A stretch of DNA of 64,000 nt. It comes from Leuctra nigra (lineage: Eukaryota; Arthropoda; Insecta; Plecoptera; Leuctridae). Positions 20,881 to 56,322 of this stretch are shown in pieces. Made by a program: the position numbers and the translations under genes. The stretch's first letter is position 1, and the number at the start of each line of letters is the position of its first letter. Where the stretch lies: positions 14,316,309 through 14,380,308 of the forward strand of contig OW203766.1 of NCBI GenBank assembly GCA_934045905.1, given 5' to 3'. Below the pieces are notes generated by a model that was given only the letters and a program-made list of their open reading frames with translations, did no database searches and was not told the DNA's origin.

Positions 20881-21766
20881 ATTATGAAAACCGCCCTAAA
20901 ACACTGTTTTCACGGCCCTCTAGCGCGCAAAGGGCGTAACCTATTGTTCCCAAATTTGGTATATGTTGTAGGGTGGGCCATAGCTCGAAATTAAGATATT
21001 TCGCAACAATGTGAGATTTCTCAATTTTAAGATCCAGTAGGCCGAAAATGCCACTTTGATGCTTACAGTAAAAGTGGGTTTGCTCCAGCCTTTATATGAG
21101 AGTGTGCGCGCGCCGTACGACTTGGCTGGCGTGGAGCGACCGCTCCACTAGATGTATGAAAATAAGAAGATATTGCAATTTCTAAATCAAAATCCATGTA
21201 ATAACGAGAAGACACCCCCTCAGTTGTTTCATTGTTTCCATTTGCCGTGAGTCTTCAAGAAAGCCTTGGAAACAAAAAACAAAATACTGACAGCTGTCAT
21301 TACACGATCAAAATATCATTATTACACTATAGTATCTAATAATTATCCACTATTTCGGTAAATAATCAAATATCAACATACATTTTTCATTCTTATTCTC
21401 AATTCTTATGAAAATATGGTCTGTGTAGCAAGAAATCATTTGATTTAAAAGTGACCTCCCTCGACGCTAGCGCCAATAGTTACCCTAACCGACCTGGCGT
21501 CCTATCTTTGCATCGTCCTTATCAAACTGCATATGGTTTTTGTTAAAAAGCAGAGCCACATCGATAATTTTTAAAGTGGTCTATTAAACGTTGGCTTGCT
21601 TTTGTTATGTCTCGATAAAGCATTTGTTTGTCCTGATTATAGGTCGCAAAATCGGCCGCTGAACGTGCAGTTTCAGGGGTTGGTAAAGCGCTGCCCGTCT
21701 ATCAGAGCAATGGTTGCTCATAATAATCTCCCTAACCAGTGTTCTTCCTCCTTGCTTTCTTGACAG

Positions 21767-24700: not shown

Positions 24701-26211
24701 GTTTGTACAATGCGGAATACGAGTTAGAGAATCAGCTTAGTGTGCGATTATTCCCGCCCTCAAGACACGAATTTGATGTTCCAGCTTTTCAAACGCAGTT
24801 AGGTTCCGAATCTTATTATCGACAAACAAAATTCTCTGTAATGGTGATGACAAGGAAGATGAAATTTCGCGTCTTTGTCATGATTTATCCGATCAACAGG
24901 TCTCTCTTACCGACGGTTGTTTACAATCACCACACGATCTACTTCAGTCGCGTGGTGGATTTATATTTCACTCCTCGTCAATCCTGGGTCGAGGAAAACG
25001 ACGGCGATGATCAAGAGAAGTATGTAGATATAATGTTCCAGCCGCTGAATTCTGATAACTTGAGTCCGTCTTCTTCCTTGTCTTCAGTTCACCTCAAGAG
25101 CGGCTGCGCTCATTGGAGCAACAGGTCGTGGTCCACATCAGGATGCTGGATCGTCAACAACGGATCATACGAAACGTGTCGATGTAATCTGTCGGAGCAT
25201 TTGCAAGAGTCTTGCACCAACGTCAGATACGTCATGTTCTTGTTTGCCGACAAGGAGAACTTCCAGTTGAAAGAAGAGTACACCATCAAGGAAATCATCT
25301 TCCTCATTGGTTCTGTACTGTCTTTGTTCGGTTTTCTATTAATCATTTTGACTGCTTCTATATTCAGATCTTATCGCAACAGAAAGAGCAACAAGATCCT
25401 CCTCCATTTAACAGCATCTTCTTTGTTTTATCTTGTTCTTACGATCTACCGAGAAACCCATTACATCTACTCCGTCGTCTCCGGCAAGAGCAACGCTTCC
25501 TTCATTACATTCACCGCGATCGTGCACTACTCCCGTCTCTCTCACTACTTCTGGATGCTGGTTATGTCTGTCCTCCAGTTGAAACGACTTCTGACGATGG
25601 TCGGGCCGACCTATGTCTCCAACTTGCTGTTGAAAGTGTCTCTGTTTGCATGGGGCACGCCTCTTGTGCCCTTGATCGTCCTTCTATCTTGGAAACCGAC
25701 CGAACACTTCTGCGGACCGAACCTCGCTACACACTTGGCTCTTTACTTCATCCCCGGAGCTGTCATCACTCTTCTCAACATGGTTGTACTCAGCGTGATT
25801 TTAGCTCGAATTTGTGCCTGCTTCGGTTGGGGAGAGAAAGCGGATCTTCGTCGACATGTGTCTAACCGAAAACTTTTGTTGAGGCGACTCAAAACGATTG
25901 TTCTTCTGTTCTTCTTGTTCGGAATTCCGACTGCGTTTGAGATGTTTAACGATCTCGGGGACCACGTGTCAGGGCTGGAATACTTGTACAAGATGACGGA
26001 CCCGATGCAAGGGTTCGTGTTGTTCCTCTTCTTTGTAGTGTTTGACGAGAAAGCTCGCGAATGCTGGAGAGACTGGATTGTTGACTGGACTGGCATTGCG
26101 AAGCGTCCTGGACAAGACTTGGTGGTCCAGGTCGTCGTCAACCAAAAGGCCTCCCCAGATTCCATCCCACTTGACGAGGTAAGCGAACGCAATGGTCTGG
26201 AGATCACCTAG
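21767..26211 (+). CDS. adhesion-type GPCR with four tandem GAIN/GPS-like modules, main exon
   Basis: One exon encodes about 1480 residues, ending at TAG 26209-26211. Four similar modules each end in a Cys/Trp-rich GPS-like block starting near 22507 (YYWNNEVGDWSDDLC), 23320 (GCAIW..GNWSDDEC), 24135 (GCASW..GC) and 25093 (GCAHW..GC), each closing with C-R/Q-C. Each block is preceded by a repeated 'YP-[ILKNV]' strand and a hydrophobic strand. From about 25280 seven hydrophobic helices follow, ending near 26050 with the adhesion-GPCR-like TM7 motif MQGFVLFLFF and a cytoplasmic tail. N-glycosylation sequons are abundant in the ectodomain. Family knowledge: GPS blocks sit before TM1 and normally self-cleave at His-Leu|Ser/Thr. 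None of the four shows that tripeptide, so cleavage is doubtful. Ligand and G-protein coupling are unknown. A donor-like GAG|GTAAGC at 26178/26179 could splice away the last ten residues. Confidence 0.85.
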
Positions 26212-40232: not shown

Positions 40233-40476
40233 ACAACTTTTAATCAAGGTCATAGCTGACGGACATTCAAGAGGTCAGTTCTTGAGCTTTATGTTTTGAA
40301 ACAGTTCAACTTCAAAAAGTTGAATTAAAAAAATCTAATTTTTAAGCAATGAAATGATTAACCCTAAAATAGACAATGTGTACTAAGTTAAAGCTGATTA
40401 TGGAATGAAAATAACTCTGATCTCTATAAAACACCGTTCTGGGTGCAACTTCTGTATCCGCCCAGTTTCCAACACT

Positions 40477-40800
40477 GCTGTTTCCCGGGCGCTCTTGCAC
40501 TTGGCGGGAATACACACCTCTGTTCCCGCCAACTGTGATGCTCGCCACTCGGACTCTGCTGTTTCCCGGGCGCTGTTGCACTTGGCGGGAATACACACCT
40601 CTGTTCCCGCCAACTGTGATGCTCGCCACTCGGACTCTGCTGTTTCCCGGGCACTGTTGCACTTGGCGGGAATACACACCTCTGTTCCCGCCAACTGTGA
40701 TGCTCGCCACTCGGACTCTGCTGTTTCCCGGGCGCTGTTGCACTTGGCGGGAATACACACCTCTGTTCCCGCCAACTGTGATGCTCGCCACTCGGACTCT
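40477..40800. repeat. 81-bp minisatellite, exactly four units, with paired E2F-type sites
   Basis: Four head-to-tail units of 81 bp, differing at only a few bases. Each holds TTGGCGGGAA and its reverse complement TTCCCGCCAA about 12 bases apart. This makes a potential hairpin and two matches to the E2F/DP consensus per unit. Because 81 is a multiple of 3, several frames stay open in both directions. I regard all of them as artefacts. Confidence 0.85.
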
Positions 40801-41196
40801 GTTCTGCACCACAGAACCAAGTAACACTAACCCGTTATTTACGCTAATGACTGGTCGAGTGGGGGAGTTAATACGTGTGCAATGCCGTGTTTAGTGGTTT
40901 TTACATTGAATTGGGGGACGGAATTTCAAATTGAATGGTACTCATTTCCTCTGTAGGTATAACGTGATGCACTGAGTAATAGACTGCATACCTGCTGAAT
41001 TAGTAACTCACACAAAATTCAAGGAGAAAATTATCATCACTCACATTCATTATCAATCGCCAGGAACTTGAATATCAGTATATAATTCATTATTAAGCTC
41101 AAAATTGGAAATATTTCAAAAATTACTTGGGTTGTTTATATTCTTAATTATATTTTATTTTACAAAACGATTTCAGCTTTATATCTTTATAATTCT
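40801..41196. other. no gene seen
   Basis: Short spacer between the minisatellite and a MITE. Nothing recognised. Confidence 0.4.
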
Positions 41197-42255: not shown

Positions 42256-42261
42256 CTTATC
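42256..42261. repeat. Polinton target-site duplication, left (CTTATC)
   Basis: The six bases before the left TIR are identical to 56317-56322, directly after the right TIR. Six-base duplications are diagnostic of Polinton/Maverick integration. Confidence 0.95.
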
Positions 42262-42532
42262 AGTAGAAGGCAGGGCGGTTGGGTACACTATAAATAGATT
42301 ATGACGTCATCATTTTTTATCAATTTTTTTACCAAATTTTTTATCGAATTTTTTTTATCGATTTTTTATCGATTTTTTATCATTTTTTTTAGCGTATTTT
42401 TTATTGATTTTTTTATCATTGGTTTTGTTTTGGACCGCCTCCACCGGAAGCCGTCACCACCGGAAGCCGCCCCACCACCGCCGCTGGAAACCGTCATCAC
42501 TCAAGGCTCCGCCCCTTTTTTATTTTCTGGCC

Positions 42533-42605
42533 GTGTCTCGAAGCCATGTCACTTGCGAATCTCATAATTAGAATCCAGCGACGCTAACCACTGCCCTAAC
42601 GAGGC
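42533..42605 (-). pseudogene. tRNA-Arg(UCU)-like remnant in the left TIR
   Basis: Mirror copy of 55973-56045. See that entry for the structure. Confidence 0.35.
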
Positions 42606-43781
42606 AATAGAGTAGAAGCGCTGTAATGAGTGTACAAGTCCTCTTGTTGACCTCAAAAGTGAAAGTAAGTTCGACTGTTCGACCGACCGAGTCTGTTTGA
42701 TCGACCTCATCTGTCATTGTCGCTGCTTAGTACCAATGTACCGTTACACTAATGAGTTTATAAGTACCTTTGTGGTGGCTAATTATAGTGTACTATAAAA
42801 TTTTGCTTACTGAAACTATGTTTCATTGTGTTAATGTACCTGCAAACACCATCTAGCGGCTAAATTGTGAACCTTCAACTCACTACTTCTGTCGCCACCT
42901 AGTTGCAAAATGAGAAACTGTAGTGACAATGCCGACCATTTTGGAATGTATTTCTATTTTCGTGAAACATAACGGATAGCTTGATCTACTGTCTCAATTC
43001 ATATTGACCAATGCCAGCATGAAACAAATTCTAATGAGAATCAATGAAACTTGATGAAAACTTACTGAATTTTATTTTTTACATACTTTGGATTAATGAA
43101 CTATTGATTGAATAATTGATAGATTGATTAGTTAATGATTTTAAAACATGATTTTACATGAATGGAAAATCATTTGGTACGTCATTGGGTAACAAATAAC
43201 CACGCGTGTTTCATTCCTGGTGTCTAAAATGTGAAACTATTATTTTTACGACAATAAAAGTGCCAAAGTACCTACAAACTCCACACTAAAGTGTAAAGCT
43301 ACTCTACGTCCTTGTGACCAAAGTATCTGCAAACGCCATCTAGCGGCTGAAATGTGATCCTATAATCTAGTTCCTTTATGTGTTGTACCTTGTTGCAAAT
43401 TGTGAAACTAAAGTCATTGGCCGACTTGGATTCTATTATCAGAATAGAATGTGTTCTACTTTCTATTTTCAAAGTCATAGCATTCTTCTACATTCTATTT
43501 CTATTTTCAGGAAAGATAGCGGTAACTTGATCTACATTCTAATTTCATTCTGGTCAATGACTTATATGAAGTAAACGTTCCATCAAAACAAATTCTATTT
43601 AGAATGAATCTTGTTGAGGAATGCAATGACTTATAGAATTTATAAAATATCAGCCAAGCTCTTAAATAATCACAAGATTTAAAATCATGGTTTTACACGG
43701 GAGATGATAGGGAAACAAATAACCACACGGAATTCATTTAAAAACCATCATGGTGTATATAATTGAGGAATAAGACAATGA

Positions 43782-44338
43782 TTAGTACTCACAATTAAAA
43801 TACTCCCTAATAAAAAATATTTTAATATCCTCGTCCGGATCGTAATCACTGTAATCGTCAGAATCGCAGGAATTGGTCTCATTAAACGTTGTTGGTAACT
43901 CACACAAATTGTCTATATCACTGTCATCGCACTCACTCGTGCTATCTATTTTTTCTTCCGCTTCTTCTTCTTCTTCTTCTGCATCATCTTTTTCATCTGC
44001 ATCTTCTTCTTCTTCGTCGTCATCTATGGTCAAATCTATATAGGCTTCTTCTCTAAATGGTTTTTGATGATGCTGATGGTGCTGATTCTCCATTTGAACA
44101 TAATGTGTCACCTCCTTGATAATTATGCAGTCATCGTCTTCCTAAATAAATAAATAAAATAAAATAAAATGAAATAAAACATATAAATATTCAATTAAGT
44201 AAATAAATAAATAAACAACTACATATAACATTTACATTTGACTCAAAATGTAATTAATAAAAGAAAGAAAGAAATAATTTGATTAAATAAATCAAAACTT
44301 ACCAGATCCATAAGCTCTTCATTGGTGAAGTTCGCCAT
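43782..44338 (-). CDS. TIR-encoded acidic protein, left copy (two exons, 131 aa)
   Basis: Exon 1 is 44303-44338 (ATG at 44338 reading down, 12 codons). The intron is 44142-44302 (161 bp, GTAAG donor, T-rich tract, ATTTAG acceptor). Exon 2 is 43782-44141. Sequence and frame are the same as the right-TIR copy at 54240-54796, where the motifs are described. It is transcribed outward, towards the left terminus, away from the ATPase gene. Confidence 0.75.
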
Positions 44339-44619
44339 AATAATATAACAATAATTTACGAGTACGTTTCACAGACCACCTTCTGCGTTGAATGCAAACG
44401 TGATTGTGTGAGAAATGTCAAATGGCTGTGATTTGAGAAGGCGGTGAATAAGGTGGAAATGCAAATGTCTTGAACGCGGAATATTTAAAATTCTGAATGC
44501 CCTTCACTAATGTATTGTAGTAATGATAGAACCCAGGACGGTAAGATAGAATATAGAGCGTCACGGCATTACAAATCAAAAATTTCGATGGAAAACACAA
44601 AGGCTAGGAATACTGTGAG

Positions 44620-45004
44620 GGTTTTCCAATGGGGCAAACACTATGGGGATATTGGGAAACCGTGTAAATACTCCTATGACGTATTTGAAACAGTACACGC
44701 ACACATATCACTGTTTTCCAGTACTAACTTATTCATTGTAAAATAATTAAAAGCAGTTTTTAAATATTGTTTAACGTCCAAAAATTAAAAATAATATTAG
44801 TAAAAATAAAAATATCGCAACAATGTCTTGAAAATTACGCTTTGTAAAATGTGCAGAACAGTGCAACGTTAAACACTGCAGCATGACGCAGTGTACGTAC
44901 TCAATAAATTAATAAATTGATAATTTAATATTAAAAATAATAAAAAATGCTACAAATGACTATAATTCTAAATAATATTCTTGTGTATTACTTAATCGCA
45001 ACAA

Positions 45005-45062
<58 letters not shown>

Positions 45063-45441
45063 TAGAATGTTATTTCACAAATAACAGCAATTTATTCTCA
45101 AAACAAGAATAAAAATGTCACATTCATACATAAATAATTGACAATATATTAAAGTAATGTTATTAGTAATTATAATATTATTATTATTATATTTAACTCA
45201 ACAATACATCAATATCAATTTCTTTTTCTTAAATGTTCAAGTTATTGCTAGTTTCATAGGCATGACGTCAGGGGTTTTCAGCTTTACCCACTACATCACA
45301 GCCAACAATCGAAACGTGGAGATTCAGGAGAAAAGCTAGGTCCGCTTGTCGACCTCAAAGGTTAAAGTATATATTCATTGCAGTTGGTATTTATTTACAT
45401 CTACCTATCTGAGGTTATCAGTATGTTTTCACGTACATAAT
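44620..45441. other. Polinton left non-coding region with A52 tract
   Basis: No large frame. An uninterrupted run of 52 A lies at 45008-45059. The 13-mer ATCGCAACAATGT occurs at about 44814-44826 and again directly before the A run. Between them 'gtgcagaacagtgcaacgtt' resembles the 3' end of the window's SINE. A small AT-rich hydrophobic frame (about 45157-45339) is probably chance. Confidence 0.5.
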
Positions 45442-45598
45442 TCATTTTAAAATTACTTTTGGGTAGACAAAATACTTTATTTATATAAATATTTCCTTTC
45501 TATGTGTGTGCCTGAAGATGGCTAGTGAATCTAGCTGAAACGTTGCAAATAAAGTATTTCTATTCACGTTTGTCTACCCAAAAGTAATTTTAAAATGA
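45442..45598. repeat. 157-bp inverted-repeat insertion upstream of the ATPase gene
   Basis: 29-bp perfect arms, 45442-45470 and 45570-45598 (left arm begins TCATTTTAAAATTACTTTTG). The 99-bp loop includes 'cctgaagatggctagtgaat' and 'gctgaaacgttgcaaataaa'. It lies 50 bp before the ATPase ATG, so it may carry or disrupt the late promoter. Confidence 0.7.
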
Positions 45599-45600
45599 AA

Positions 45601-45612
45601 TATATATATATA
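45601..45612 (+). promoter_or_regulatory. TATA-like tract before the ATPase gene cluster
   Basis: TATATATATATA lies about 35 bases upstream of the ATPase ATG and is the only obvious TATA-like element before the overlapping rightward gene cluster. The transcription start is not known. Confidence 0.35.
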
Positions 45613-45645
45613 GCACTGTTCAAGTGTTGACAATTAGTTGATGAA

Positions 45646-46332
45646 ATGGATCCCTCTTGGAAAGTTCCATTTAGTGCTGTGATCTCGGGGCCCAGTGGGT
45701 GTGGGAAAAGTCATTTCATTGCCCGGTTTCTCAAACACCTTGATGCTATGGTGGACAAACCAATAGCAGAAGTTATTTGGTGTTATGCAGAATGGCAAAG
45801 TCTGTATGATAACCTTCAAAAAGAACATTCTATTCGTTTCCATAGAGGTATTATTGACTCTGACGAATTACCTACTAGTTCTAAAGCACGTATAGTAATC
45901 ATCGATGATCTTCAACGTGAAGCCGATGAACGGGTCACTGATTTGTTTACCAAAGGTGGTCATCATCGCAATCTATGTGTTCTTTTCCTCGTTCAAAATA
46001 TATTTACTCAAGGAAAAGGTCGAAGAGATATTTCTTTGAACGCACACTATGTTGTCTGTTTTAAGAATCCCCGAGACAGAGCACAAATCATGCATTTATC
46101 TAGACAGGTAGCACCGCAAAACTCTAAATTTGTACAGGAAGCGTTTGAAGATGCAACAAGGGAAGCACATGGATATTTACTTTTTGACTTTAAACAAAGT
46201 ACTGATGAAATCATGCGCCTGCGCACATCAATTTTTCCTGATGATAAAGAATCATTTGTCTATATTCCAAAGAATTCGAGTATAAAATCGAAATACATGG
46301 TGGATTTACAATCATTCAATCAAAATGTCTGA
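45646..46332 (+). CDS. Polinton packaging ATPase (FtsK/HerA, A32-like)
   Basis: 228-aa P-loop ATPase expected to power packaging of viral DNA into capsids. Walker A is GPSGCGKS at residues 15-22. Walker B is VIIDDL at about 84-89, followed by a QRE/DER stretch. A conserved 'VLFLVQNIF' strand with a sensor-like Q comes near residue 120. Length matches Polinton/adintovirus ATPases. The ATG at 45646 puts the P-loop at the usual distance from the N-terminus. It is the first gene of the rightward cluster, and its stop overlaps the next start (ATGTCTGA). The frame is intact. Confidence 0.93.
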   Translation: MDPSWKVPFSAVISGPSGCGKSHFIARFLKHLDAMVDKPIAEVIWCYAEWQSLYDNLQKEHSIRFHRGIIDSDELPTSSKARIVIIDDLQREADERVTDLFTKGGHHRNLCVLFLVQNIFTQGKGRRDISLNAHYVVCFKNPRDRAQIMHLSRQVAPQNSKFVQEAFEDATREAHGYLLFDFKQSTDEIMRLRTSIFPDDKESFVYIPKNSSIKSKYMVDLQSFNQNV

Positions 46333-46654
46333 TACGATGTTGAAGCATAAGGATCTTCTTCGAATGCTTCAAAAGTGTTCGCCGTCCATGCGAAACTCCA
46401 TTTTAAAAGCAGCCGATTCTGGTCTCATCAAGTCGTTGTGTGAATGCGCACACAATACATTAAAAGGCAATGTTCGTCTGAATCCAAGTCAGAAGTCAAA
46501 ATTACGTCGACACAAGAACGTCCTTCGTAAGATTATAAAGCGAGGCGAGAATTGGAAGAAGAAGAAGAAACTCTTAATGCAAAAAGGTGGAGCCATCCTT
46601 CCTCTCTTACTTGCGCCCATTCTGTCAAGCATTGTTGGTAGTCTTATGCAATAA
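46325..46654 (+). CDS. small conserved Polinton protein with basic middle and hydrophobic C-terminus
   Basis: 109 aa. The N-terminal half is helical and Leu/Ser-rich with CECAHNTLKGN at about residues 38-48. The middle is strongly basic (KLRRHKNVLRKIIKR, then KKKKK). After QKGG the last 20 residues are hydrophobic (AILPLLLAPILSS...). Proteins of this design sit next to the ATPase in many Polintons and adintoviruses. A DNA-binding or membrane-active virion role is an inference from composition. The start overlaps the ATPase stop by 8 bases, and its TAA overlaps the next ATG (TAATG). Confidence 0.7.
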   Translation: MSDTMLKHKDLLRMLQKCSPSMRNSILKAADSGLIKSLCECAHNTLKGNVRLNPSQKSKLRRHKNVLRKIIKRGENWKKKKKLLMQKGGAILPLLLAPILSSIVGSLMQ

Positions 46655-47406
46655 TGGAAAAGACAAGGAAGATGTTACTCATTGATCCAGAGAGTATCAA
46701 TCGACTGCAGCAAACGTTTACGAGACCTCTCGCTAGCAACACGTCAACTCTGTCAAACATAGACCAGGATATGGATCAAATTCTCAATTCTAAAACCATG
46801 TCTGGTCGGGAAAAATGGAAACAGTATAACCAAGTTCTTCAGAGATATCTATATTTTGTAAATGATTCGCGAAAACCTTTGGCTATGACAATATCAGACG
46901 AGGATGTACAACGTTCAAATACTGTTGCTGCTGTCGATGCAACAAATAGGGATCTAGACTCAAAAGATGATCAGGCTTTTGAGCTCATGCGAGAACAAAC
47001 ACTCTCAACTATTCCCAACAAGTATCGCAACACTGCATCCCTACTGTATGACAAACTCAAATTTTCTGATTCTATATCATGGGATCGTTTGGGTACCGTC
47101 AGTATAAACGGAAAGAAAATTGTTGGTTCCTCCATCACCGATCTAATTGCCGATTCAATTAGGGACCGTAAAGCTACAAATCCAGAGGGCTGGATGGAGT
47201 TTGCCAACATTCTAACAGACATCAACGTACCATTGGAACTTATAGGCAATTCCCGTCGGAAAGAATTCATTCGTGTACAGCATCGTCAACCGAACACACG
47301 AGGCGTTGAAGCACGGTCTCTGGAAAGTTTCGAAATACCAGCTTTGACAGACACACCGTCACGTAAACGCAAGGTAGCCAAGTGGGAGGCATTCACATTC
47401 GAATGA
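46654..47406 (+). CDS. Polinton protein of unknown function (250 aa)
   Basis: I do not recognise a named domain. Mostly hydrophilic and predicted helical, with no signal peptide or membrane segment. It has a W-rich patch (SGREKWKQYNQ), a 'SWDRLGTVSINGKKIVGSSI' stretch and a basic C-terminus (PSRKRKVAKWEAF). Its fixed place between the small protein and the integrase suggests a conserved structural or regulatory role. It starts in a TAATG overlap with the gene before, and its TGA overlaps the integrase start (ATGA). Confidence 0.7.
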   Translation: MEKTRKMLLIDPESINRLQQTFTRPLASNTSTLSNIDQDMDQILNSKTMSGREKWKQYNQVLQRYLYFVNDSRKPLAMTISDEDVQRSNTVAAVDATNRDLDSKDDQAFELMREQTLSTIPNKYRNTASLLYDKLKFSDSISWDRLGTVSINGKKIVGSSITDLIADSIRDRKATNPEGWMEFANILTDINVPLELIGNSRRKEFIRVQHRQPNTRGVEARSLESFEIPALTDTPSRKRKVAKWEAFTFE

Positions 47407-48488
47407 ATCAAAGAAACAAGAGACTACTTGCAAACATCTACCATGATCCTGAACATCCAGCTGGTTATAGAACTGTTGATGCTTTATGGAAAGCAACCAA
47501 CAAGACTGTTCCAAAAGCAGAAGTTGAAACGTATTTGCAAACACAGAATGCCTTTACCCTACATAGAAATTTAAGGAAACGGTTTAAACGCAATGTCTAT
47601 TTGGTGGACAACATTGACGATTTATGGCAGGCCGATTTAAATGTCATGGATTCACTGAAACAACACAATGACGGTTTTATTTATCTGTTAACAGTGATTG
47701 ATGTGTTTAGTAAAGTAGCGTGGGCTGTCCCACTGAAACGTAAAACGGGTGATGCAGTGACTGAAGCATTCAAGTTTATATTTAAGAAAAGCAAAAGGAA
47801 ACCTGTAAGCCTAAATACAGATAAAGGCCGTGAATTTATAAATAAAGTATTTCAAAAGTTTCTCAAAGATAACAATGTCAAATATTATCACACAAATAAC
47901 CCTGACATCAAAAGTTCCATAATAGAAAGGTTTAACCGTACACTCAAGACTCGTATGTACCGTTACTTCACAGCTAAAAGTACTCAGCGTTATGTCGATG
48001 TACTACCGCAACTGTTGAAATCATACAATCATACGGTGCATAGATCAATTCGAATGGCTCCAGTAGATGTGAAGGATGAAAATGTACTCCAGGTGTGGCA
48101 CAACCTATATGATAAACATTTGTCGCTAAAGAAATCTAAACCTAGGCTGATAATTGGTGATCGTGTACGCATAAGTAATGAGAAGTTTCAGTTTGAAAAA
48201 GGGTATGTTCAGAACTGGTCTGAAGAAGTGTTCGTGGTTACACATGTTCTAAGACACAGACAAGTTGTGTATAGAATCAAAGATTTGGAAGATGAGGAGA
48301 TTGAAGGAACATTTTATGAGAAAGAGTTACAAAAAGTTATTATTGATGACAAGACCGAGTATAGAATAGATTATATTGTGGACACAAAGGGTTCGGGTGC
48401 TAGAAAGAAACTACTCGTCAAGTGGAAAGGTTATAGCAGCAAGTTTAATGATTGGATCCCTGCATCAGAATTGAAACAACATGGATGA
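47403..48488 (+). CDS. Polinton integrase (DDE, RVE family) with C-terminal chromodomain
   Basis: 361-aa retroviral-type integrase that would insert the element and make the 6-bp duplication. The catalytic triad is complete: D78 (in WQADLNVMD), D140 (LNTDKG) and E175 (IIERFNRT), with 34 residues between D140 and E175. A C-terminal chromodomain at about residues 319-358 (start YRIDYIVD, core LLVKWKGYSS, end DWIPASEL) may guide target choice through histone marks. The start at 47403 is chosen because ATGA overlaps the upstream stop; the frame is open a little further upstream. The stop overlaps the next start (ATGGATGA). Confidence 0.95.
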   Translation: MNQRNKRLLANIYHDPEHPAGYRTVDALWKATNKTVPKAEVETYLQTQNAFTLHRNLRKRFKRNVYLVDNIDDLWQADLNVMDSLKQHNDGFIYLLTVIDVFSKVAWAVPLKRKTGDAVTEAFKFIFKKSKRKPVSLNTDKGREFINKVFQKFLKDNNVKYYHTNNPDIKSSIIERFNRTLKTRMYRYFTAKSTQRYVDVLPQLLKSYNHTVHRSIRMAPVDVKDENVLQVWHNLYDKHLSLKKSKPRLIIGDRVRISNEKFQFEKGYVQNWSEEVFVVTHVLRHRQVVYRIKDLEDEEIEGTFYEKELQKVIIDDKTEYRIDYIVDTKGSGARKKLLVKWKGYSSKFNDWIPASELKQHG

Positions 48489-49242
48489 CTCGTTTTACAT
48501 GACGCTACCCAGCAACGTTTCAATGTCTACTTATTCAGGCAATACAACTGCTCGTTATACAACACAGCTAAGAGAACCTGTCAAGTTACACGGCCAGTGG
48601 TCTGTTGCACTCGTAGAGTTTCATTTCCCTCAAACATTCTTTAACGTTGTTGAGGGTCAGAATGAAATTAAAATTTCCTACATGTCGGATAATGTAGCCG
48701 TAATTGATTTACTCTATGTAAAGCCGGGCTTTTATGCTACCAACAGCAATTTGTTGAAGGCCGTCAATGAGACTTTATCCCCTGTAGGGTATGGCAAGAT
48801 AAAAATTGATCCAAACACTAAAAGAGCTCATCTATCTCTAGGTGAAGCTTATATGAAACAATCGGCAGTTAAGTTTTCACCTGAACTGGCCAGACAAATG
48901 GGTTATGATCCTGTGATCAATGCATCCTCTTATACAATGGCAGGCTCTGCTATGAATTTGAGTTGGGGGTCCCCACATCATATTTTCGTCTATTGCGACA
49001 TCATTGATCCTCAAATTGTTGGTGATACTGTGTCCCCTCTTTTGAGGATGGTTAATACAAATATTTCAAAGAATGATTTTGGAGACGAGGTTACTGTTTC
49101 GTTTCAAACACTGCAATACGTTCCAGTACTAAGACGTGAATTTAGTACAGTGGAAATAGATTTAAGGGGCAGCACAGGCGTTCCGATACCATTCCAAACA
49201 GGTACGTCTTCAGTGATGCTTCATTTTAAGCGGCGTTCATAA
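48481..49242 (+). CDS. minor capsid protein (penton-like, single jelly roll)
   Basis: 253 aa. Begins DDSFYMTLPSNVSM and continues with LREPVKLHGQWSVALVEFHFP, the characteristic N-terminal strands of Polinton/adintovirus penton proteins. It is beta-rich with a C-terminal 'VPIPFQTGTSSVMLHF' strand. It should form the capsid vertices. It sits between integrase and pX-like gene as in other Polintons, overlapping both neighbours (8 bases at the start, TAATG at the end). Confidence 0.85.
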   Translation: MDDSFYMTLPSNVSMSTYSGNTTARYTTQLREPVKLHGQWSVALVEFHFPQTFFNVVEGQNEIKISYMSDNVAVIDLLYVKPGFYATNSNLLKAVNETLSPVGYGKIKIDPNTKRAHLSLGEAYMKQSAVKFSPELARQMGYDPVINASSYTMAGSAMNLSWGSPHHIFVYCDIIDPQIVGDTVSPLLRMVNTNISKNDFGDEVTVSFQTLQYVPVLRREFSTVEIDLRGSTGVPIPFQTGTSSVMLHFKRRS

Positions 49243-49736
49243 TGCACGGACACGACACTAATTTCTACACCAGTTATTATCTGGAACAGGCTGGAAGCGG
49301 AATTAATGTATTTAGAGGAGCACGTTATCAGAGAGGACACGGAATATCAAGTTTCTTCAAGGGGCTATTCAGAGCAGCATTGCCTTTGTTCAAGAGTGGT
49401 GCAAGAGCTGTTGGTCACGAGGTTTTGAGATCAGGGGCTAATGTTTTAAACGACATTTCAGACAATAAATCTATTAGACAGTCTTTAAGAGAACGCGCTG
49501 GTGAGTCTGAACGAAACCTCAAGCGTAAAGCCGCAATAAAATTAAGTACCATGACAGGCAATGGGTTAAAAGGACGAAAGCTACGTCGTATTACTCATTC
49601 GTCTTTCATACCTAAACGAGGCAAGACATCTAGGGAAACAATAAAGAGGAGATTACCTCCGAGGCAGAAGAAGAGAAAGGTTACAAAGAGGAAAGTGTCT
49701 ATTAAGAAGTTGAAAGTCCAAGATATATTTGCCTAA
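49242..49736 (+). CDS. pX/pVI-like basic core protein with adenain-type cleavage site
   Basis: 164 aa. Residues about 24-70 show the Polinton pX pattern (RGARYQRGHGISSFFKGLFR, then a P-x(3)-KSGARAVGHEVLRSG helix). The C-terminal third is very basic (KKRKVTKRKVS), consistent with DNA condensation. MTGN|G at residues 104-108 fits the adenovirus protease rule (M/I/L)-x-G-x|G, so the element's own protease probably processes it. The start overlaps the penton stop. Confidence 0.8.
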   Translation: MHGHDTNFYTSYYLEQAGSGINVFRGARYQRGHGISSFFKGLFRAALPLFKSGARAVGHEVLRSGANVLNDISDNKSIRQSLRERAGESERNLKRKAAIKLSTMTGNGLKGRKLRRITHSSFIPKRGKTSRETIKRRLPPRQKKRKVTKRKVSIKKLKVQDIFA

Positions 49737-49737
49737 A

Positions 49738-51042
49738 ATGTCTCTTCTTCATGAAAAATCAGGTAAATCGATCAAAGCTGAAATGGACATTTTTGGATTG
49801 CCAGTTACACAGACAATGATTGAACGTGGAGATTATATCCCGTTCAAACCCATGGCAGCCCTTAACGACAATGCACCTGTTGAGTTTGTTGTACCTGGTA
49901 GAGGAGACGAATACATTGATCCTGCCCAAACGCTTTATCATATTGAGGCTCAAATCACTATGGCTGATGGAACTAATGTCCCTGCTGACACTGTTGTAGG
50001 TCCTGTTAATAATTGGCTTCATTCAGCTTGGAGTCAAGTTGACGTTACTCTAAACGACAAACAGCTGTCTCCTCCTACACAGATGTATCCATACAGGGCA
50101 TACATTGAGACTCTTTTACATTATTCAGCTGATGCAAAGGGTTCACATGTCGGTACCAGATTCTGGTACAAGGATCTCGCAGGAAAGATGGATGACTTGT
50201 CTCTGAACACTGGTTTTACCAAAAGAGCTTCTCTTACTGCTAGTAGTAGGACTGTTGATATGATTGGGAACATACACTGCGACTTGTTCAATCAAGAACG
50301 TTTTCTAATAAACGGAGTTGATATGAAAGTTAAATTCATTCGTAGTAAAGATGCTTTTCAGTTGATGAGCGCCAATACAAACCTAAAAGTGCATATTACT
50401 GATGCAACTCTGTACGTTCGTAAAGTTAAAATTGATCCTGATGTTCTAATTGCCCAAAATCAAGTTCTGCGTTCCAATAAAAATGCAAAATATCCACTTA
50501 CGAGGGTGGATACGCGAGTTGTCACCATACCTGCTGGATTGCATAGCAAAACTTTGGATAATTTGTTTATGGGCCAAATTCCTACACGTATTGTAATTGG
50601 ATTTGTCACAAATGCAGCGTTCAATGGCTCCTTTACTCGTAATCCGTTCAACTTTCAACACTTTGGAATGAACTTTTTCTGTCTCTACATTGACGGCTTT
50701 CAAATTCCTTCAAAGCCATTTACACCCGATTTCGCAAGCAAACGTTACGTTAGAGAGTACCATTCCCTCTTTTCAGGAACGGGTATTCACTATCACAACG
50801 AAGGAAACGATATTACTATGGAAGAGTACCCAAATGGATTTTGTCTCCTGTGTTTTGACTTGACTCCAGATTTGTCTGCCGATTCTGACCATTGGTGCCT
50901 TAAGCGCAGCGGTAGTATAAGAGTGGATGTGAGGTTCAGTACAGCGCTCACAGAGGCCGTTGACTGTATTGTTTACGCTGAATACGACAGCCTGATGGAG
51001 ATTGATAGTAATAGAAACGTTATTATAGACTACAACAACTGA
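49738..51042 (+). CDS. major capsid protein (hexon-like, double jelly roll)
   Basis: 434 aa. VVGPVNNWLHSAWSQVDVTL (about residues 82-101), then YPYRAYIETLLHYSADAKG, are the conserved blocks of Polinton/adintovirus major capsid proteins. Two beta-rich halves follow, the second starting near residue 220. The likely start is the ATG at 49738, one base after the pX-like TAA. The intact frame and the presence of the full capsid, ATPase and protease set indicate that the element could form virions. Confidence 0.92.
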   Translation: MSLLHEKSGKSIKAEMDIFGLPVTQTMIERGDYIPFKPMAALNDNAPVEFVVPGRGDEYIDPAQTLYHIEAQITMADGTNVPADTVVGPVNNWLHSAWSQVDVTLNDKQLSPPTQMYPYRAYIETLLHYSADAKGSHVGTRFWYKDLAGKMDDLSLNTGFTKRASLTASSRTVDMIGNIHCDLFNQERFLINGVDMKVKFIRSKDAFQLMSANTNLKVHITDATLYVRKVKIDPDVLIAQNQVLRSNKNAKYPLTRVDTRVVTIPAGLHSKTLDNLFMGQIPTRIVIGFVTNAAFNGSFTRNPFNFQHFGMNFFCLYIDGFQIPSKPFTPDFASKRYVREYHSLFSGTGIHYHNEGNDITMEEYPNGFCLLCFDLTPDLSADSDHWCLKRSGSIRVDVRFSTALTEAVDCIVYAEYDSLMEIDSNRNVIIDYNN

Positions 51043-51073
51043 GTTTCAAGTCAGTTCCGATCTGACAGTCGTC

Positions 51074-51841
51074 ATGAGTGCCACGATTGATTTTCAAGCG
51101 TTCATGGTTGACGGTTGTTTGTATGTGAAGGAGTTGGCCATTATCGATAACAAATCACTCAAGTACAATGATTGGTTATTTACATCTCCTGTAAATTTCA
51201 AAGCGGATAAAACAAACGTGTGGCTTACCGAAAATTATCATGGGTTAAACCCAAAGTCCGGCGATGTTCCGTACGAAGCTCTTAACGCAATCATTATGGA
51301 TCATACTCGTCGGTACAAGATTTTATTCGTGAAAGGTCAGGAAAAGGCCGAATTCATCAGGCGCATCATACATCGACATGTCATTGACTTGGAGTCTATG
51401 GGTTGTAGTAAGCTTCAAAGTCTTGCACATTGTGCAACGCCTTCATCACTTCCAACATGTATGAATCATGGAGGTACAAACAGACACTGTGCTATTCGAA
51501 ACGTGTTTGTACTTGCACGCTGGGTGAAGGGGAACTCTGACATCACCGACCTCACTAAGACGTCCGCACGATTGAAAACATTCAAAAATTTTAAAAGTAT
51601 CCACGTGACCCCCGAAGACCTGGCAGCTGCGGGATATTACTACACACAGAAGAGTGATTTGGTCAATTGTCCATTCTGCAATATAGACGTGCATCAATGG
51701 GTAGCAGGTGACATTCCACGCGACGAACATGTGAGGTGGAGTCCGAGGTGTTCATTCGTAGCAAGAGAACGGCGAGGTATTGACGTGTGCGGATTCGGTC
51801 TTTGTGGATTCAAAAACGAAGGCTTTGACGAAGTCGATTGA
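51074..51841 (+). CDS. BIR-domain protein (IAP-like) with unrecognised N-terminal domain
   Basis: 255 aa. C-terminal residues about 160-230 are a BIR zinc domain. R164-TF..F opens it, followed by LAAAGYYYT, then C199-x2-C202-x16-H219-x6-C226, the canonical BIR ligand spacing, with W-V-AGDIPRDEH around it. There is no RING or second BIR. The N-terminal 150 residues hold a compact alpha/beta domain I cannot name. It has FMVDGCLYVKELAIID, WLTENYHGL and ILFVKGQEKAEF blocks and a possible zinc site C129-x2-H132-x5-H138-C139. BIR proteins of insect viruses often block apoptosis, but BIRs also serve other roles, so an anti-apoptotic job is inference. Sits between capsid and protease genes, 31 bases after the MCP stop. 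Confidence 0.85.
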   Translation: MSATIDFQAFMVDGCLYVKELAIIDNKSLKYNDWLFTSPVNFKADKTNVWLTENYHGLNPKSGDVPYEALNAIIMDHTRRYKILFVKGQEKAEFIRRIIHRHVIDLESMGCSKLQSLAHCATPSSLPTCMNHGGTNRHCAIRNVFVLARWVKGNSDITDLTKTSARLKTFKNFKSIHVTPEDLAAAGYYYTQKSDLVNCPFCNIDVHQWVAGDIPRDEHVRWSPRCSFVARERRGIDVCGFGLCGFKNEGFDEVD

Positions 51842-51846
51842 ACATC

Positions 51847-52377
51847 ATGTTTACCTCTGACATCGAGCATGCACTCATCAGCGACATCCACTGCAGACCA
51901 TACTATAAGGGTGTATTTGCTGCCGACAACCTGCCTGTATCAACTGTTGGACTCCCAGCTCTCCTAGTTTCAAACACAGATGTCCAGAGGCTTGCTGGAT
52001 CACATTGGATTGCCATTTACATTGATTCAAGAGGTCGCGGTGAATTTTTCTGCAGCTACGGAATGAAGCCAGTTGTTCAACATCACATTGATTTTCTTGA
52101 CCGACAGTGTACCTCATGGACTTATAATGATGTGACTCTTCAAAGTATTCAATCAGAAGTGTGTGGAGAATATTGTGTATTGTTTTTAGCCACAAGAGCA
52201 AGAGGGTTTCCAATGTCGTTTTTTATTTCCAAGTATGTGGAACGATCGCCACTTAGAAATGATAGACTAACCAGAAATAAATATTTTAAGAAATTTGGTC
52301 ACTGTATTAAACATTCTGTAAATGACGGTACTGTTAATCAGTGTTGCTGTGCATTGCGCACTTATGTACTAGCATAA
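51847..52377 (+). CDS. adenain-like maturation cysteine protease (C5/C63 type)
   Basis: 176 aa. GSHWIAIYI gives the catalytic His (H53). QSIQSEVCGEYC gives the oxyanion Gln (Q99) and nucleophile C106, with the same Q-to-C distance (7) as adenovirus protease. The usual acidic third residue lies in the 'E/D-(P/S)-(F/Y)-G' motif. Here that motif reads EFFCSYG, so the acid is replaced by Cys69. E66 or D60 might substitute, or activity may be altered. It starts six bases after the BIR stop, and an in-frame TTG just upstream is not used. It probably cleaves the pX-like protein. Confidence 0.85.
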   Translation: MFTSDIEHALISDIHCRPYYKGVFAADNLPVSTVGLPALLVSNTDVQRLAGSHWIAIYIDSRGRGEFFCSYGMKPVVQHHIDFLDRQCTSWTYNDVTLQSIQSEVCGEYCVLFLATRARGFPMSFFISKYVERSPLRNDRLTRNKYFKKFGHCIKHSVNDGTVNQCCCALRTYVLA

Positions 52378-52745
52378 GATAAATGTATGTTAAATCACTT
52401 TATATTTATGTTCAATATAAAATTATTGTTTTACGGGTATTAAGATGTATTTTCATAATTACAATAAATAGTTTGTTACTTTAATTTCGCATTTGAAATT
52501 CATTTCTTCAACCAACACATTCCTGACCTACACCCATCCTATTTCTTAAACAACCGTTACTTGAAAACATTCAGACCAGCTTGAAACAGTTTGGACCTGC
52601 TGAAACATGATCGAACCTGATGAAACAGAGGAACTGTGACGTAAAGAGAAAGTAAATTTACGGTTAGCACAAGCACTACGCGCACAGAGTGGTCAGTCGT
52701 GACACAGATCTTGAACCGTCAAGTATTGTATTCAGTGGCTTCATC
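52378..52745. other. Polinton intergenic region: 3' end of the gene cluster, start of the last gene
   Basis: AATAAA at 52463-52468 is the likely poly(A) signal for the rightward cluster. Bases about 52570-52640 repeat 'tgaaac' words (four within 60 bp). A further promoter for the 227-aa gene probably lies here. No coding frame. Confidence 0.5.
52463..52468 (+). terminator. possible poly(A) signal of the Polinton gene cluster
   Basis: AATAAA 86 bases after the protease stop, in AT-rich DNA. I did not pick out another strong signal between the overlapping genes. Confidence 0.45.
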
Positions 52746-53429
52746 ATGTGTAGCGAAGAAAAGAGCATTCCTATGGATACGAACGAAAAGGCGACTGCAA
52801 CAGAAGTTTCGGGTGTACTGTGTTCGTTTAATTACGTCAACTCATCTAAATCAAAGTTGGTTGTGACTGGTCTCGATGCAAATAACGAGTTCAAGCCCTA
52901 CATGAAGCTAATGTCATCGTCGGGAACAGGCATTGTCCTGGACACCTTGCAGTGGAAGTATCTCGTCTCGGCCATCGCTGACTTGACACCTGGAGTCTTC
53001 ACGATGAATCCTGAAGAGGCTGGCGTCCAACAAATACCAGGTTATACCATCAGTGTGCGGAGGTTCGGTGGATCTAATATCTTGTGCATCGAATCAAAGT
53101 GCATTCCTGGCATGGGTGTGTATTGTGGAAAAGTGACGTGTGAAGAAATACTCAAGAAACGAGCGTTCCTAACATTCATGATGGATCATTGGGAATCCAT
53201 TTCTGAGAACATTGCAAATTGGGTCGAACATGTTCAAATTGCCATCGCAAAGACTCTTGTTAAACAAAGTAAACATGTAGATAAATATTTATTTGTTAAC
53301 AGTTACGTAAACGGTTTACAAAGTGATTTTGTACATAAGCGTACTGAATACGAAATCAGAGTCCTGAGAGAGCTGGGTACTGATTATTTAATTGAAGAGT
53401 TTAACAATAACTATGAACAGAAATACTAA
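52746..53429 (+). CDS. Polinton protein of unknown function, possibly PC4-like
   Basis: 227 aa from ATG 52746. The open frame extends 19 codons upstream without an ATG. Function not recognised. Two parts each look like beta strands followed by a helix: 'MKLMSSSGTGIVLDTLQWKY' near residues 53-72, and 'TISVRRFGGSNILCI' near 105-119 with a helix after it. The G-I-x-L-x(4)-W spacing recalls the single-strand-DNA-binding coactivator PC4, but this is weak. It stands apart from the overlapping cluster and has its own upstream region, so it may be regulated separately (early or replication class). Confidence 0.6.
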   Translation: MCSEEKSIPMDTNEKATATEVSGVLCSFNYVNSSKSKLVVTGLDANNEFKPYMKLMSSSGTGIVLDTLQWKYLVSAIADLTPGVFTMNPEEAGVQQIPGYTISVRRFGGSNILCIESKCIPGMGVYCGKVTCEEILKKRAFLTFMMDHWESISENIANWVEHVQIAIAKTLVKQSKHVDKYLFVNSYVNGLQSDFVHKRTEYEIRVLRELGTDYLIEEFNNNYEQKY

Positions 53430-53449
53430 ACATGTATGGATTTAGTATG

Positions 53450-53826
53450 TGTCTTATTCCTCAATTATATACACCATGATGGTTTTTAAATGAATTCCGT
53501 GTGGTTATTTGTTTCCCTATCATCTCCCGTGTAAAACCATGATTTTAAATCTTGTGATTATTTAAGAGCTTGGCTGATATTTTATAAATTCTATAAGTCA
53601 TTGCATTCCTCAACAAGATTCATTCTAAATAGAATTTGTTTTGATGGAACGTTTACTTCATATAAGTCATTGACCAGAATGAAATTAGAATGTAGATCAA
53701 GTTACCGCTATCTTTCCTGAAAATAGAAATAGAATGTAGAAGAATGCTATGACTTTGAAAATAGAAAGTAGAACACATTCTATTCTGATAATAGAATCCA
53801 AGTCGGCCAATGACTTTAGTTTCACA
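53450..53826. repeat. extra partial copy of a TIR segment (377 bp, direct)
   Basis: Matches 54801-55177 in the right TIR at a constant offset of 1351 bases from 'tgtcttattcctcaattata' to 'gactttagtttcaca'. That segment therefore occurs three times in the element: left TIR, inner right, right TIR. No difference was noticed by eye. Confidence 0.85.
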
Positions 53827-53960
53827 TTCTAGCTACCAGGTGAACTCAATTAGTTCCACATTTACCTAATAGGTGCCAGTACTTGGTACAATGACGTACT
53901 ACAATAGTTTCACAATTACGCCACCAGGTGAACTCAATTAGTTCCACATTTACCTAATCT
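53827..53960. repeat. iteron-like tandem repeats inside the right TIR
   Basis: Two near-identical units containing 'accaggtgaactcaattagt' and 'tccacatttacctaat' start near 53834 and 53922. Between them is a variant with 'aggtgccagtacttggta'. They extend the same motif series found at 55170-55731. Confidence 0.75.
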
Positions 53961-54239
53961 CACAGTATTCCTAGCCTTTGTGTTTTCCATCGAAATTTTT
54001 GATTTGTAATGCCGTGACGCTCTATATTCTATCTTACCGTCCTGGGTTCTATCATTACTACAATACATTAGTGAAGGGCATTCAGAATTTTAAATATTCC
54101 GCGTTCAAGACATTTGCATTTCCACCTTATTCACCGCCTTCTCAAATCACAGCCATTTGACATTTCTCACACAATCACGTTTGCATTCAACGCAGAAGGT
54201 GGTCTGTGAAACGTACTCGTAAATTATTGTTATATTATT

Positions 54240-54796
54240 ATGGCGAACTTCACCAATGAAGAGCTTATGGATCTGGTAAGTTTTGATTTATTTAATCAAA
54301 TTATTTCTTTCTTTCTTTTATTAATTACATTTTGAGTCAAATGTAAATGTTATATGTAGTTGTTTATTTATTTATTTACTTAATTGAATATTTATATGTT
54401 TTATTTCATTTTATTTTATTTTATTTATTTATTTAGGAAGACGATGACTGCATAATTATCAAGGAGGTGACACATTATGTTCAAATGGAGAATCAGCACC
54501 ATCAGCATCATCAAAAACCATTTAGAGAAGAAGCCTATATAGATTTGACCATAGATGACGACGAAGAAGAAGAAGATGCAGATGAAAAAGATGATGCAGA
54601 AGAAGAAGAAGAAGAAGCGGAAGAAAAAATAGATAGCACGAGTGAGTGCGATGACAGTGATATAGACAATTTGTGTGAGTTACCAACAACGTTTAATGAG
54701 ACCAATTCCTGCGATTCTGACGATTACAGTGATTACGATCCGGACGAGGATATTAAAATATTTTTTATTAGGGAGTATTTTAATTGTGAGTACTAA
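54240..54796 (+). CDS. TIR-encoded acidic protein, right copy (two exons, 131 aa)
   Basis: Exon 1 is 54240-54275 (ATG at 54240, 12 codons). The intron is 54276-54436 (161 bp, GTAAG, TTTA-rich tract, ATTTAG). Exon 2 is 54437-54796. Splicing supplies an ATG; exon 2 alone has only a GTG-initiated frame. The product is extremely acidic. AYIDLTIDDDEEEE is a textbook SUMO-interaction motif (hydrophobic I-D-L-T next to acids), and CIIIKEV before it is a second candidate. An HHQHHQ cluster lies between, and long E/D and S/D runs fill the rest. No known family. A regulatory role such as transactivation or control of host SUMO bodies is inference. Its duplicate location keeps it in any element with both TIRs, and gene conversion would keep the copies identical. 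Confidence 0.8.
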
Positions 54797-55169
54797 TCAT
54801 TGTCTTATTCCTCAATTATATACACCATGATGGTTTTTAAATGAATTCCGTGTGGTTATTTGTTTCCCTATCATCTCCCGTGTAAAACCATGATTTTAAA
54901 TCTTGTGATTATTTAAGAGCTTGGCTGATATTTTATAAATTCTATAAGTCATTGCATTCCTCAACAAGATTCATTCTAAATAGAATTTGTTTTGATGGAA
55001 CGTTTACTTCATATAAGTCATTGACCAGAATGAAATTAGAATGTAGATCAAGTTACCGCTATCTTTCCTGAAAATAGAAATAGAATGTAGAAGAATGCTA
55101 TGACTTTGAAAATAGAAAGTAGAACACATTCTATTCTGATAATAGAATCCAAGTCGGCCAATGACTTTA

Positions 55170-55731
55170 GTTTCACAATTTGCAACAAGGTACAACACAT
55201 AAAGGAACTAGATTATAGGATCACATTTCAGCCGCTAGATGGCGTTTGCAGATACTTTGGTCACAAGGACGTAGAGTAGCTTTACACTTTAGTGTGGAGT
55301 TTGTAGGTACTTTGGCACTTTTATTGTCGTAAAAATAATAGTTTCACATTTTAGACACCAGGAATGAAACACGCGTGGTTATTTGTTACCCAATGACGTA
55401 CCAAATGATTTTCCATTCATGTAAAATATTGTTTTAAAATCATTAACTAATCAATCTATCAATTATTCAATCAATAGTTCATTAATCCAAAGTATGTAAA
55501 AAATAAAATTCAGTAAGTTTTCATCAAGTTTCATTGATTCTCATTAGAATTTGTTTCATGCTGGCATTGGTCAATATGAATTGAGACAGTAGATCAAGCT
55601 ATCCGTTATGTTTCACGAAAATAGAAATACATTCCAAAATGGTCGGCATTGTCACTACAGTTTCTCATTTTGCAACTAGGTGGCGACAGAAGTAGTGAGT
55701 TGAAGGTTCACAATTTAGCCGCTAGATGGTG
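55170..55731. repeat. iteron-like motifs with CTCF-like core in the right TIR
   Basis: Five copies of TTCACAnTT-n(2-6)-(C/A)YAGRTGG-like sequence, at about 55171-55195, 55221-55246, 55341-55362, 55661-55687 and 55707-55731. The best, GCCGCTAGATGGCG and CAACTAGGTGGCGA, match about 12 of 14 positions of the CTCF core CCASYAGRKGGCRS. The same set is mirrored in the left TIR (42847-43408). Confidence 0.6.
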
Positions 55732-55972
55732 TTTGCAGGTACATTAACACAATGAAACATAGTTTCAGTAAGCAAAATTTTATAGTACACTATAATTAGC
55801 CACCACAAAGGTACTTATAAACTCATTAGTGTAACGGTACATTGGTACTAAGCAGCGACAATGACAGATGAGGTCGATCAAACAGACTCGGTCGGTCGAA
55901 CAGTCGAACTTACTTTCACTTTTGAGGTCAACAAGAGGACTTGTACACTCATTACAGCGCTTCTACTCTATT

Positions 55973-56045
55973 GCCTCGTTAGGGCAGTGGTTAGCGTCGC
56001 TGGATTCTAATTATGAGATTCGCAAGTGACATGGCTTCGAGACAC
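55973..56045 (+). pseudogene. tRNA-Arg(UCU)-like remnant in the right TIR
   Basis: 'gcctcgttagggcagtggtt' followed by 'agcgtcgctggattctaatt' follows the layout of an arthropod tRNA-Arg: D-arm AG.GCAGTGGTTAGC, then anticodon loop ATTCTAA with anticodon TCT. 'ggcttcgag' stands where the T-loop would be. Acceptor pairing GCCTCGT/ACACGGC is only 5 of 7, and the T-stem is poor, so it is a remnant or mimic, not a working tRNA. It begins about 270 bp inside the terminus. Confidence 0.4.
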
Positions 56046-56316
56046 GGCCAGAAAATAAAAAAGGGGCGGAGCCTTGAGTGATGACGGTTTCCAGCGGCGG
56101 TGGTGGGGCGGCTTCCGGTGGTGACGGCTTCCGGTGGAGGCGGTCCAAAACAAAACCAATGATAAAAAAATCAATAAAAAATACGCTAAAAAAAATGATA
56201 AAAAATCGATAAAAAATCGATAAAAAAAATTCGATAAAAAATTTGGTAAAAAAATTGATAAAAAATGATGACGTCATAATCTATTTATAGTGTACCCAAC
56301 CGCCCTGCCTTCTACT

Positions 56317-56322
56317 CTTATC
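56317..56322. repeat. Polinton target-site duplication, right (CTTATC)
   Basis: Identical to 42256-42261. Confidence 0.95.

What the first reader, a model, noticed from the sequence alone, without database searches (positions are those of the whole stretch)
42262..56316. Intact, recently inserted Polinton that lacks DNA polymerase B
Seen: perfect CTTATC duplication, 2358-bp TIRs with two differences found, and open frames for ATPase, integrase, both capsid proteins, pX-like protein and protease. Also seen: no frame of the roughly 1000 residues expected for protein-primed PolB, and no interior gap above about 1 kb. Established: Polintons/adintoviruses are normally defined by PolB plus integrase. 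Inference: this lineage may replicate by host polymerases, by a helper in trans, or through one of its unknown genes. The intact capsid set suggests it is not just a dead deletion product.
Basis: partly seen in the sequence, partly recalled or inferred. Interest (0 to 1): 0.92.

Follow-up and report, generated by a model that had tools for sequence, protein, structure and literature searches.

The report
Polymerase-less Polinton family that spread
An insect-like genome carries a family of virus-like jumping elements that lost the gene for their own DNA-copying enzyme yet kept their shell and integration genes and still spread to many places, most likely by borrowing the enzyme from related elements.

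Summary
Window 42262-56316 is a 14,055-bp Polinton: CTTATC duplication, 2,358-bp TIRs with two mismatches, ten open genes, no PolB. It is not a private deletion: the genome holds 13 copies with 99-100% identical integrase. Of the 12 siblings, 11 lack PolB at the same place; one keeps only 133 C-terminal PolB residues. In 9 of 9 siblings whose ends could be read, the 6-bp duplications match and differ between copies, so the PolB-less form itself moved. By contrast 14 of 16 integrase relatives at 78-82% have a PolB hit upstream. All ten interior genes have open-frame counterparts in a PolB-bearing sister (ORF2 seen in part), so nothing visible replaces PolB. Relics show that this lineage once had PolB. 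A C3 insertion without integrase and a gene-free 0.7-kb palindrome, both with these tips, carry matching duplications: integrase worked in trans. Best explanation: a capsid-encoding, non-autonomous Polinton copied by PolB in trans; that last step is inferred. New variant of a known kind.

The parts
42256..42261 (.). left target-site duplication CTTATC
56317..56322 (.). right target-site duplication CTTATC
42262..44619 (+). left terminal inverted repeat, tip AGTAGAAGGCAGGG
53959..56316 (-). right terminal inverted repeat, two mismatches to the left one
43782..44141 (-). acidic open frame (119 aa stop to stop) inside the TIR; no Pfam family
54437..54796 (+). second copy of the acidic TIR frame
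44620..45630 (.). non-coding left spacer at the place where the C8 sister carries PolB; 9 of 12 siblings are colinear with it throughout
45434..45606 (.). imperfect hairpin (38-nt arms, 95% complementary) that ends at the boundary near 45605 where the C2:41.81M copy turns to PolB remnant
45646..46329 (+). packaging-ATPase-like P-loop protein (228 aa)
46328..46651 (+). ORF2, 108 aa, unknown; counterpart in the PolB-bearing sister (66 residues compared)
46654..47403 (+). ORF3, 250 aa, unknown, counterpart in the PolB-bearing sister
47403..48485 (+). retroviral-type integrase with chromodomain (361 aa)
48481..49239 (+). minor capsid (penton) protein
   Evidence: fold match to mavirus penton
   Evidence: no Pfam family
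49738..51039 (+). major capsid protein, fold match to double-jelly-roll capsid proteins
51074..51838 (+). protein with C-terminal BIR domain
   Evidence: E 5.6e-19
51847..52374 (+). adenovirus-type cysteine protease (weak Pfam match)
   Evidence: E 0.083; counterpart in sister
52746..53426 (+). ORF10, 227 aa, unknown, counterpart in the sister
53450..53826 (.). out-of-place 377-bp TIR segment, inverted copy of 43401-43777; read as a relic of the older right end
53931..55765 (.). 1,835 bp absent from the older right end (the C3 insertion and the copies at C4:1.45M and C2:30.33M join 53930 to 55766)

Best explanation
A Polinton lineage lost PolB at the boundary just upstream of the ATPase gene, kept integrase, capsid, packaging and protease genes, and then multiplied as a non-autonomous (satellite-like) element. 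Shown: PolB is absent at one shared place in 11 of 12 siblings and in the window copy, copies sit at independent sites with their own duplications, and sequences are nearly identical. Inferred: the copying enzyme is a protein-primed PolB supplied in trans, either by a PolB-bearing form of the same lineage (seen here only as relics) or by the related PolB-bearing families in the same genome; integrase from any copy then inserts the linear DNA by its tips. The rebuilt right end and the palindromic derivatives fit end-primed linear replication.
For: Integrase: 13 copies at 99-100%, none with a listed PolB-profile hit within 20 kb, against 14 of 16 copies at 78-82% with one upstream on the same strand. 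PolB site read directly in 12 of 12 siblings: 11 without PolB, 1 with a 133-aa C-terminal remnant. TSDs match in 9 of 9 siblings tested and all differ (chance per site 2.4e-4). Over about 4 kb, seven siblings show 0-8 substitutions plus small gaps, with integrase, ORF3, penton and pX frames full length in 7 of 7; capsid-protein piece, BIR, protease and ORF10 without stops in 4 of 4 other pieces read. Trans action of integrase: the C3 insertion (no integrase in its three pieces; TSD TACTAG) and the C10 mini-palindrome (no genes; TSD AATGTT). Same-lineage PolB relics on C2, C3 and C10. Ten of ten interior genes have open-frame counterparts in the C8 sister.
Against: No helper was caught in the act. 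No intact same-lineage PolB was found in this assembly, in a search that scored 57 of 94 candidates. The C8 sister family has other TIRs; its tip agrees with the window tip only in the first nucleotides (AGTAGA, then partly). Sister PolBs are only about 43-52% identical to the N-terminal relic and 67-69% to the C-terminal one, so they may not recognise these ends. Palindromes and end copying can also arise by host repair.
Confidence: 0.62

Rival explanations
1. No PolB needed: integrase moves the element and host polymerases copy it during replication or repair.
For: Integrase frame full length in 7 of 7 siblings checked. Cut-and-paste transposons with a Gypsy-type integrase exist (start of the abstract of PMC2836005, listed).
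Against: The rebuilt right end and palindromic insertions of the same family look like products of linear replication; that reading is inference.
Confidence: 0.18
2. One of the unknown genes (ORF2, ORF3, ORF10 or the acidic TIR frame) is a replacement replicase or recruits one.
For: Functions unknown; the acidic TIR frame was found only in this family's own pieces among the loci held.
Against: ORF2, ORF3 and ORF10 have counterparts beside PolB in the sister; none has a Pfam match; the acidic frame is about 100 aa of low complexity.
Confidence: 0.05
3. Bipartite genome: PolB travels on a second element with the same ends.
For: The C3 insertion has this family's tips and a PolB N-terminal piece without integrase.
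Against: Of 46 TIR matches (40 of 42 candidates scored) none lies within 20 kb of a PolB listed; two places lie near PolB pieces: the broken C3 composite, and a short 76% match about 4.5 kb from a frame-broken PolB on C4.
Confidence: 0.06
4. Private deletion or assembly error.
For: None found.
Against: Same junction in siblings on several chromosomes with separate TSDs.
Confidence: 0.02

Closest known systems
Polinton/Maverick elements (animal Polintons, adintoviruses)
   Same: 6-bp TSD, TIRs, rve integrase, ATPase-like protein, double-jelly-roll MCP, penton, protease (weak match)
   Different: No protein-primed PolB, which the passages read name among the group's proteins (PMC6431247; PMC4028283)
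PolB-bearing sister Polinton family in the same genome (C8:15.3M)
   Same: Counterparts of ten of ten interior genes at 50-86% aa identity in the same order; ORF2 compared over 66 residues
   Different: 1,462-aa PolB frame upstream of the ATPase; ~0.74-kb TIRs (96% to each other) without blastn match to the window TIRs
Polintons that lost the capsid module (PMC4028283, passages)
   Same: Loss of a module within Polintons
   Different: Opposite loss: here capsid genes stay and the polymerase goes
Polinton-like viruses and Tlr elements
   Same: Capsid genes, some with rve integrase, mostly without canonical pPolB (PMC11071308 and PMC12747079, passages)
   Different: Those carry another replication protein (helicase, primase or polymerase fusion); none was recognised here
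Non-autonomous transposons and satellite viruses (recalled)
   Same: Depend on an enzyme from a relative
   Different: This one keeps a full capsid gene set

Membership tests
Polinton/Maverick | 6-bp target-site duplication and terminal inverted repeats | tested here: met
Polinton/Maverick | retroviral-type (rve) integrase | tested here: met
   PF00665 E 3.6e-15
[quoted passage not shown]
   PolB site in siblings
Polinton/Maverick | FtsK/A32-type packaging ATPase | tested here: inconclusive
   P-loop hits, Pox_A32 E 8.6e-4, below its cut-off; 82% identical to the sister's ATPase-like frame
Polinton/Maverick | double-jelly-roll MCP and jelly-roll penton | tested here: met
   Foldseek E 1.1e-14 (3j26_A) and 3.8e-11 (6g41_G)
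Polinton/Maverick | adenovirus-type protease | tested here: inconclusive
   Peptidase_C5 E 0.083
Polinton-like virus with alternative replicase | helicase, primase or other polymerase in place of PolB | tested here: not met
   Pfam scan of ten proteins: weak helicase names only on the P-loop of the ATPase-like protein, which the PolB-bearing sister also has
Trans-mobilised non-autonomous element | several independent insertions of the enzyme-less form | tested here: met
Trans-mobilised non-autonomous element | autonomous relative with matching ends in the same genome | tested here: inconclusive
   only relics or partial matches with matching ends
Satellite virus | packaging or replication shown with a helper | not testable with these tools
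   needs the living host

The most novel reading that the evidence does not exclude
An endogenous virus-like lineage has become a replication satellite of its own kin: it keeps and transmits a complete capsid, packaging and integration set, has dropped the polymerase that defines its group, and has multiplied so well that in this genome its PolB-bearing parent survives only as broken relics and diverged sisters.
Probability: 0.4. Interest if true: 0.72.

Novelty: new variant of a known kind. Interest (0 to 1): 0.62.

Why it matters
Polintons are thought of as self-synthesising elements with their own PolB. A PolB-less subfamily with open capsid genes and ten recent insertions with readable, separate target duplications (window plus nine siblings) is a natural test of whether Polinton replication genes work in trans and whether virion genes persist without the polymerase. 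Palindromic and end-copied derivatives with target duplications also give physical clues to how Polinton DNA is copied and integrated.

Tried and rejected
Private deletion or assembly error: rejected. Simple deletion of PolB from the C8 sister family: rejected as the direct source, because the left end and TIRs do not match that sister; the same-lineage relics are a better source. A hidden PolB in the window: rejected at tblastn sensitivity. Relatives in IMG/VR: two scans confirmed none. A sequence match of the MCP to solved structures: none. Own-genome searches that never got an answer: the MCP protein, the C-terminal PolB piece and the 44620-45640 interior; so the number of capsid-bearing copies is not known. 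The one search list is incomplete (86 of 152 candidates scored): it lacks a reverse-oriented PolB seen in L052 and the PolB pieces on C3, C4:0.86M and C10:29.92M found.
Full report
What was checked. The element at 42262-56316 is real. The two arms of 2,358 bp are complementary except at two adjacent positions, and CTTATC lies on both sides. The ten interior genes point the same way: ATPase-like, ORF2, ORF3, integrase, penton, pX-like, major capsid protein, BIR protein, protease, ORF10. The capsid protein has 826 homologues, several of the 120 listed named from insect genomes, and its model matches Sputnik and mavirus capsid proteins; the penton model matches the mavirus penton. The protease and packaging-ATPase calls rest on weak profile matches plus position.

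PolB is absent from the window. The longest frame in the element is 442 aa, and a 1,462-aa PolB from a sister element in the same genome finds nothing better than E about 2 in the whole window.

Not a one-off. The window lies in a 536-Mb assembly. Its integrase DNA has 40 scored matches (of 70 candidates): 13 at 99-100% (the window copy and 12 siblings), 16 at 78-82%, 1 partial at 77%, 3 at 70-71% and 7 at 66%. Profile PF03175 places a PolB upstream on the same strand within 20 kb of 14 of the 16 copies at 78-82% and of 0 of the 13 close copies. The two without are C1:51332175 and C7:34487879; upstream of the latter lie retroelement frames. Because one search scored 86 of 152 candidates and missed PolBs seen later, I read the PolB site directly in all 12 siblings. 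Nine are colinear with the window there apart from small indels. C11 has a deletion of about 700 bp reaching into the ATPase gene. C10:4.65M has about 195 bp extra at 45612. The copy at C2:41.81M instead carries the last 133 residues of a PolB, cut off by an inverted piece of the BIR gene. So 11 of 12 have no PolB there and 1 has a remnant.

It moved in this form. For 9 siblings both ends could be read; all 9 have a matching 6-bp duplication, each different, and different from CTTATC. Three of 12 were not resolved: C7 (no right TIR match), C10:4.65M and C2:41.81M (another tip sequence). Seven siblings differ from the window by 0-8 substitutions and a few gaps over about 4 kb, and integrase, ORF3, penton and pX frames are full length in 7 of 7; ORF2 is altered, or its start was not found, in 3 of 7. 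In four siblings the capsid-protein piece (from about residue 35), BIR, protease and ORF10 have no stops. The remaining siblings were not read in those genes. The spread is therefore recent and followed the loss of PolB.

History of the ends. In the C3 insertion and in siblings C4:1.45M and C2:30.33M, base 53930 joins directly to 55766. The window's right end has 1,835 bp more, matching its left end, and keeps a 377-bp segment at 53450-53826 that belongs to the older right end. Reading: the left end was copied onto the right end. From TIR positions, the two copies with the older right end are 12.25-12.28 kb; seven copies, the window included, are 14.0-14.9 kb; C11 is 13.4 kb and C10:4.65M 12.75 kb; C7 and C2:41.81M could not be measured in the same way.

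Where PolB went. On C3, one 12.6-kb insertion with TSD TACTAG is a composite: this family's tip, ORF10 at 98%, then a 783-aa N-terminal PolB frame, followed by an 8.1-kb palindrome of the family's right half. A search with the 783-aa piece (59 matches, 57 of 94 candidates scored) finds the same lineage only there and on C10:29.92M, where pieces of 75-94% identity are split over three frames with a 7.4-kb gap; next comes a relative on C4:0.86M (63-72%) whose frame breaks further on, then sister families at 50-52% and 43-45% with frames up to 1,497 aa. No intact same-lineage PolB was seen.

How it works, most likely. Integrase acted in trans within this family: the C3 composite has no integrase in its three pieces and the C10 palindrome of two tips has no genes, yet both are inserted with perfect duplications. 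By the same logic PolB was supplied in trans while the PolB-less form multiplied. Ten of ten interior genes have an open-frame counterpart in the PolB-bearing C8 sister, ORF2 compared over only 66 of 108 residues because the fetched piece ends there, so no gene looks like a replacement. That a PolB rather than a host enzyme copied the element is inference; it rests on the end-copying and the palindromes, which fit linear, end-primed copying as in adenovirus-like systems (recalled). Whether the helper was a PolB-bearing form of the same lineage, perhaps infectious, or the present sisters is open; the C8 sister's tip agrees only in the first nucleotides.

Host. The longest host frame (21736-26211) is a 7tm_2 (adhesion-type) receptor nearest stick-insect and fly proteins; the host is probably an insect, not identified further.

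Novelty. Papers seen in passages describe Polintons as encoding PolB and integrase (PMC6431247, PMC4028283), loss of capsid genes in some Polintons (PMC4028283), and PLVs that lack pPolB but have another replication protein (PMC11071308, PMC12747079). Full-text phrase searches found no paper on non-autonomous or defective Polintons and, for PolB-lacking wording, 16 papers of which the 15 listed were unrelated by title except PMC12747079. Subscription literature and Repbase were not searched, so an earlier report is possible.

Noticed in passing
G000 C3:18901016-18909143 (L094, L095): 8.1-kb palindrome made of two copies of this family's right half (MCP C-terminus to tip) head to head, inside one composite insertion.
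   Followed up: partly
G000 C10:7950671-7951399 (L100); C1:5580918-5581380 (L101): Mini-palindromes of two family tips only; the first has TSD AATGTT, the second lacks the first bases of one tip.
   Followed up: partly
G000 C4:16943867-16950630 and C12:24537307-24544332: Pairs of PolB genes arranged tail to tail, about 30 bp and 1.6 kb between the matched parts; perhaps palindromic Polinton derivatives.
   Followed up: no
L052 (G000 C10:17102000-17108000): A Polinton of the ~71% integrase group with PolB in the opposite orientation beside a C2H2 zinc-finger frame.
   Followed up: partly
G000 C10:4641803-4654552 and C2:41805955: Copies with 99-100% identical integrase but another tip (AGTAGTATGTGAGACACC...), so termini seem to be exchanged between elements.
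   Followed up: partly
window 43785-44093 (-): Acidic TIR-encoded frame with a hydrophobic-acidic stretch that resembles a SUMO-interacting motif (motif recalled, not tested).
   Followed up: no
window 51074-51838: BIR (inhibitor of apoptosis) domain gene next to the capsid gene, without stops in four siblings read and with a 50% counterpart in the sister.
   Followed up: partly
window 40342-40894: Repetitive stretch read as open frames on both strands, about 1.4 kb from the insertion.
   Followed up: no
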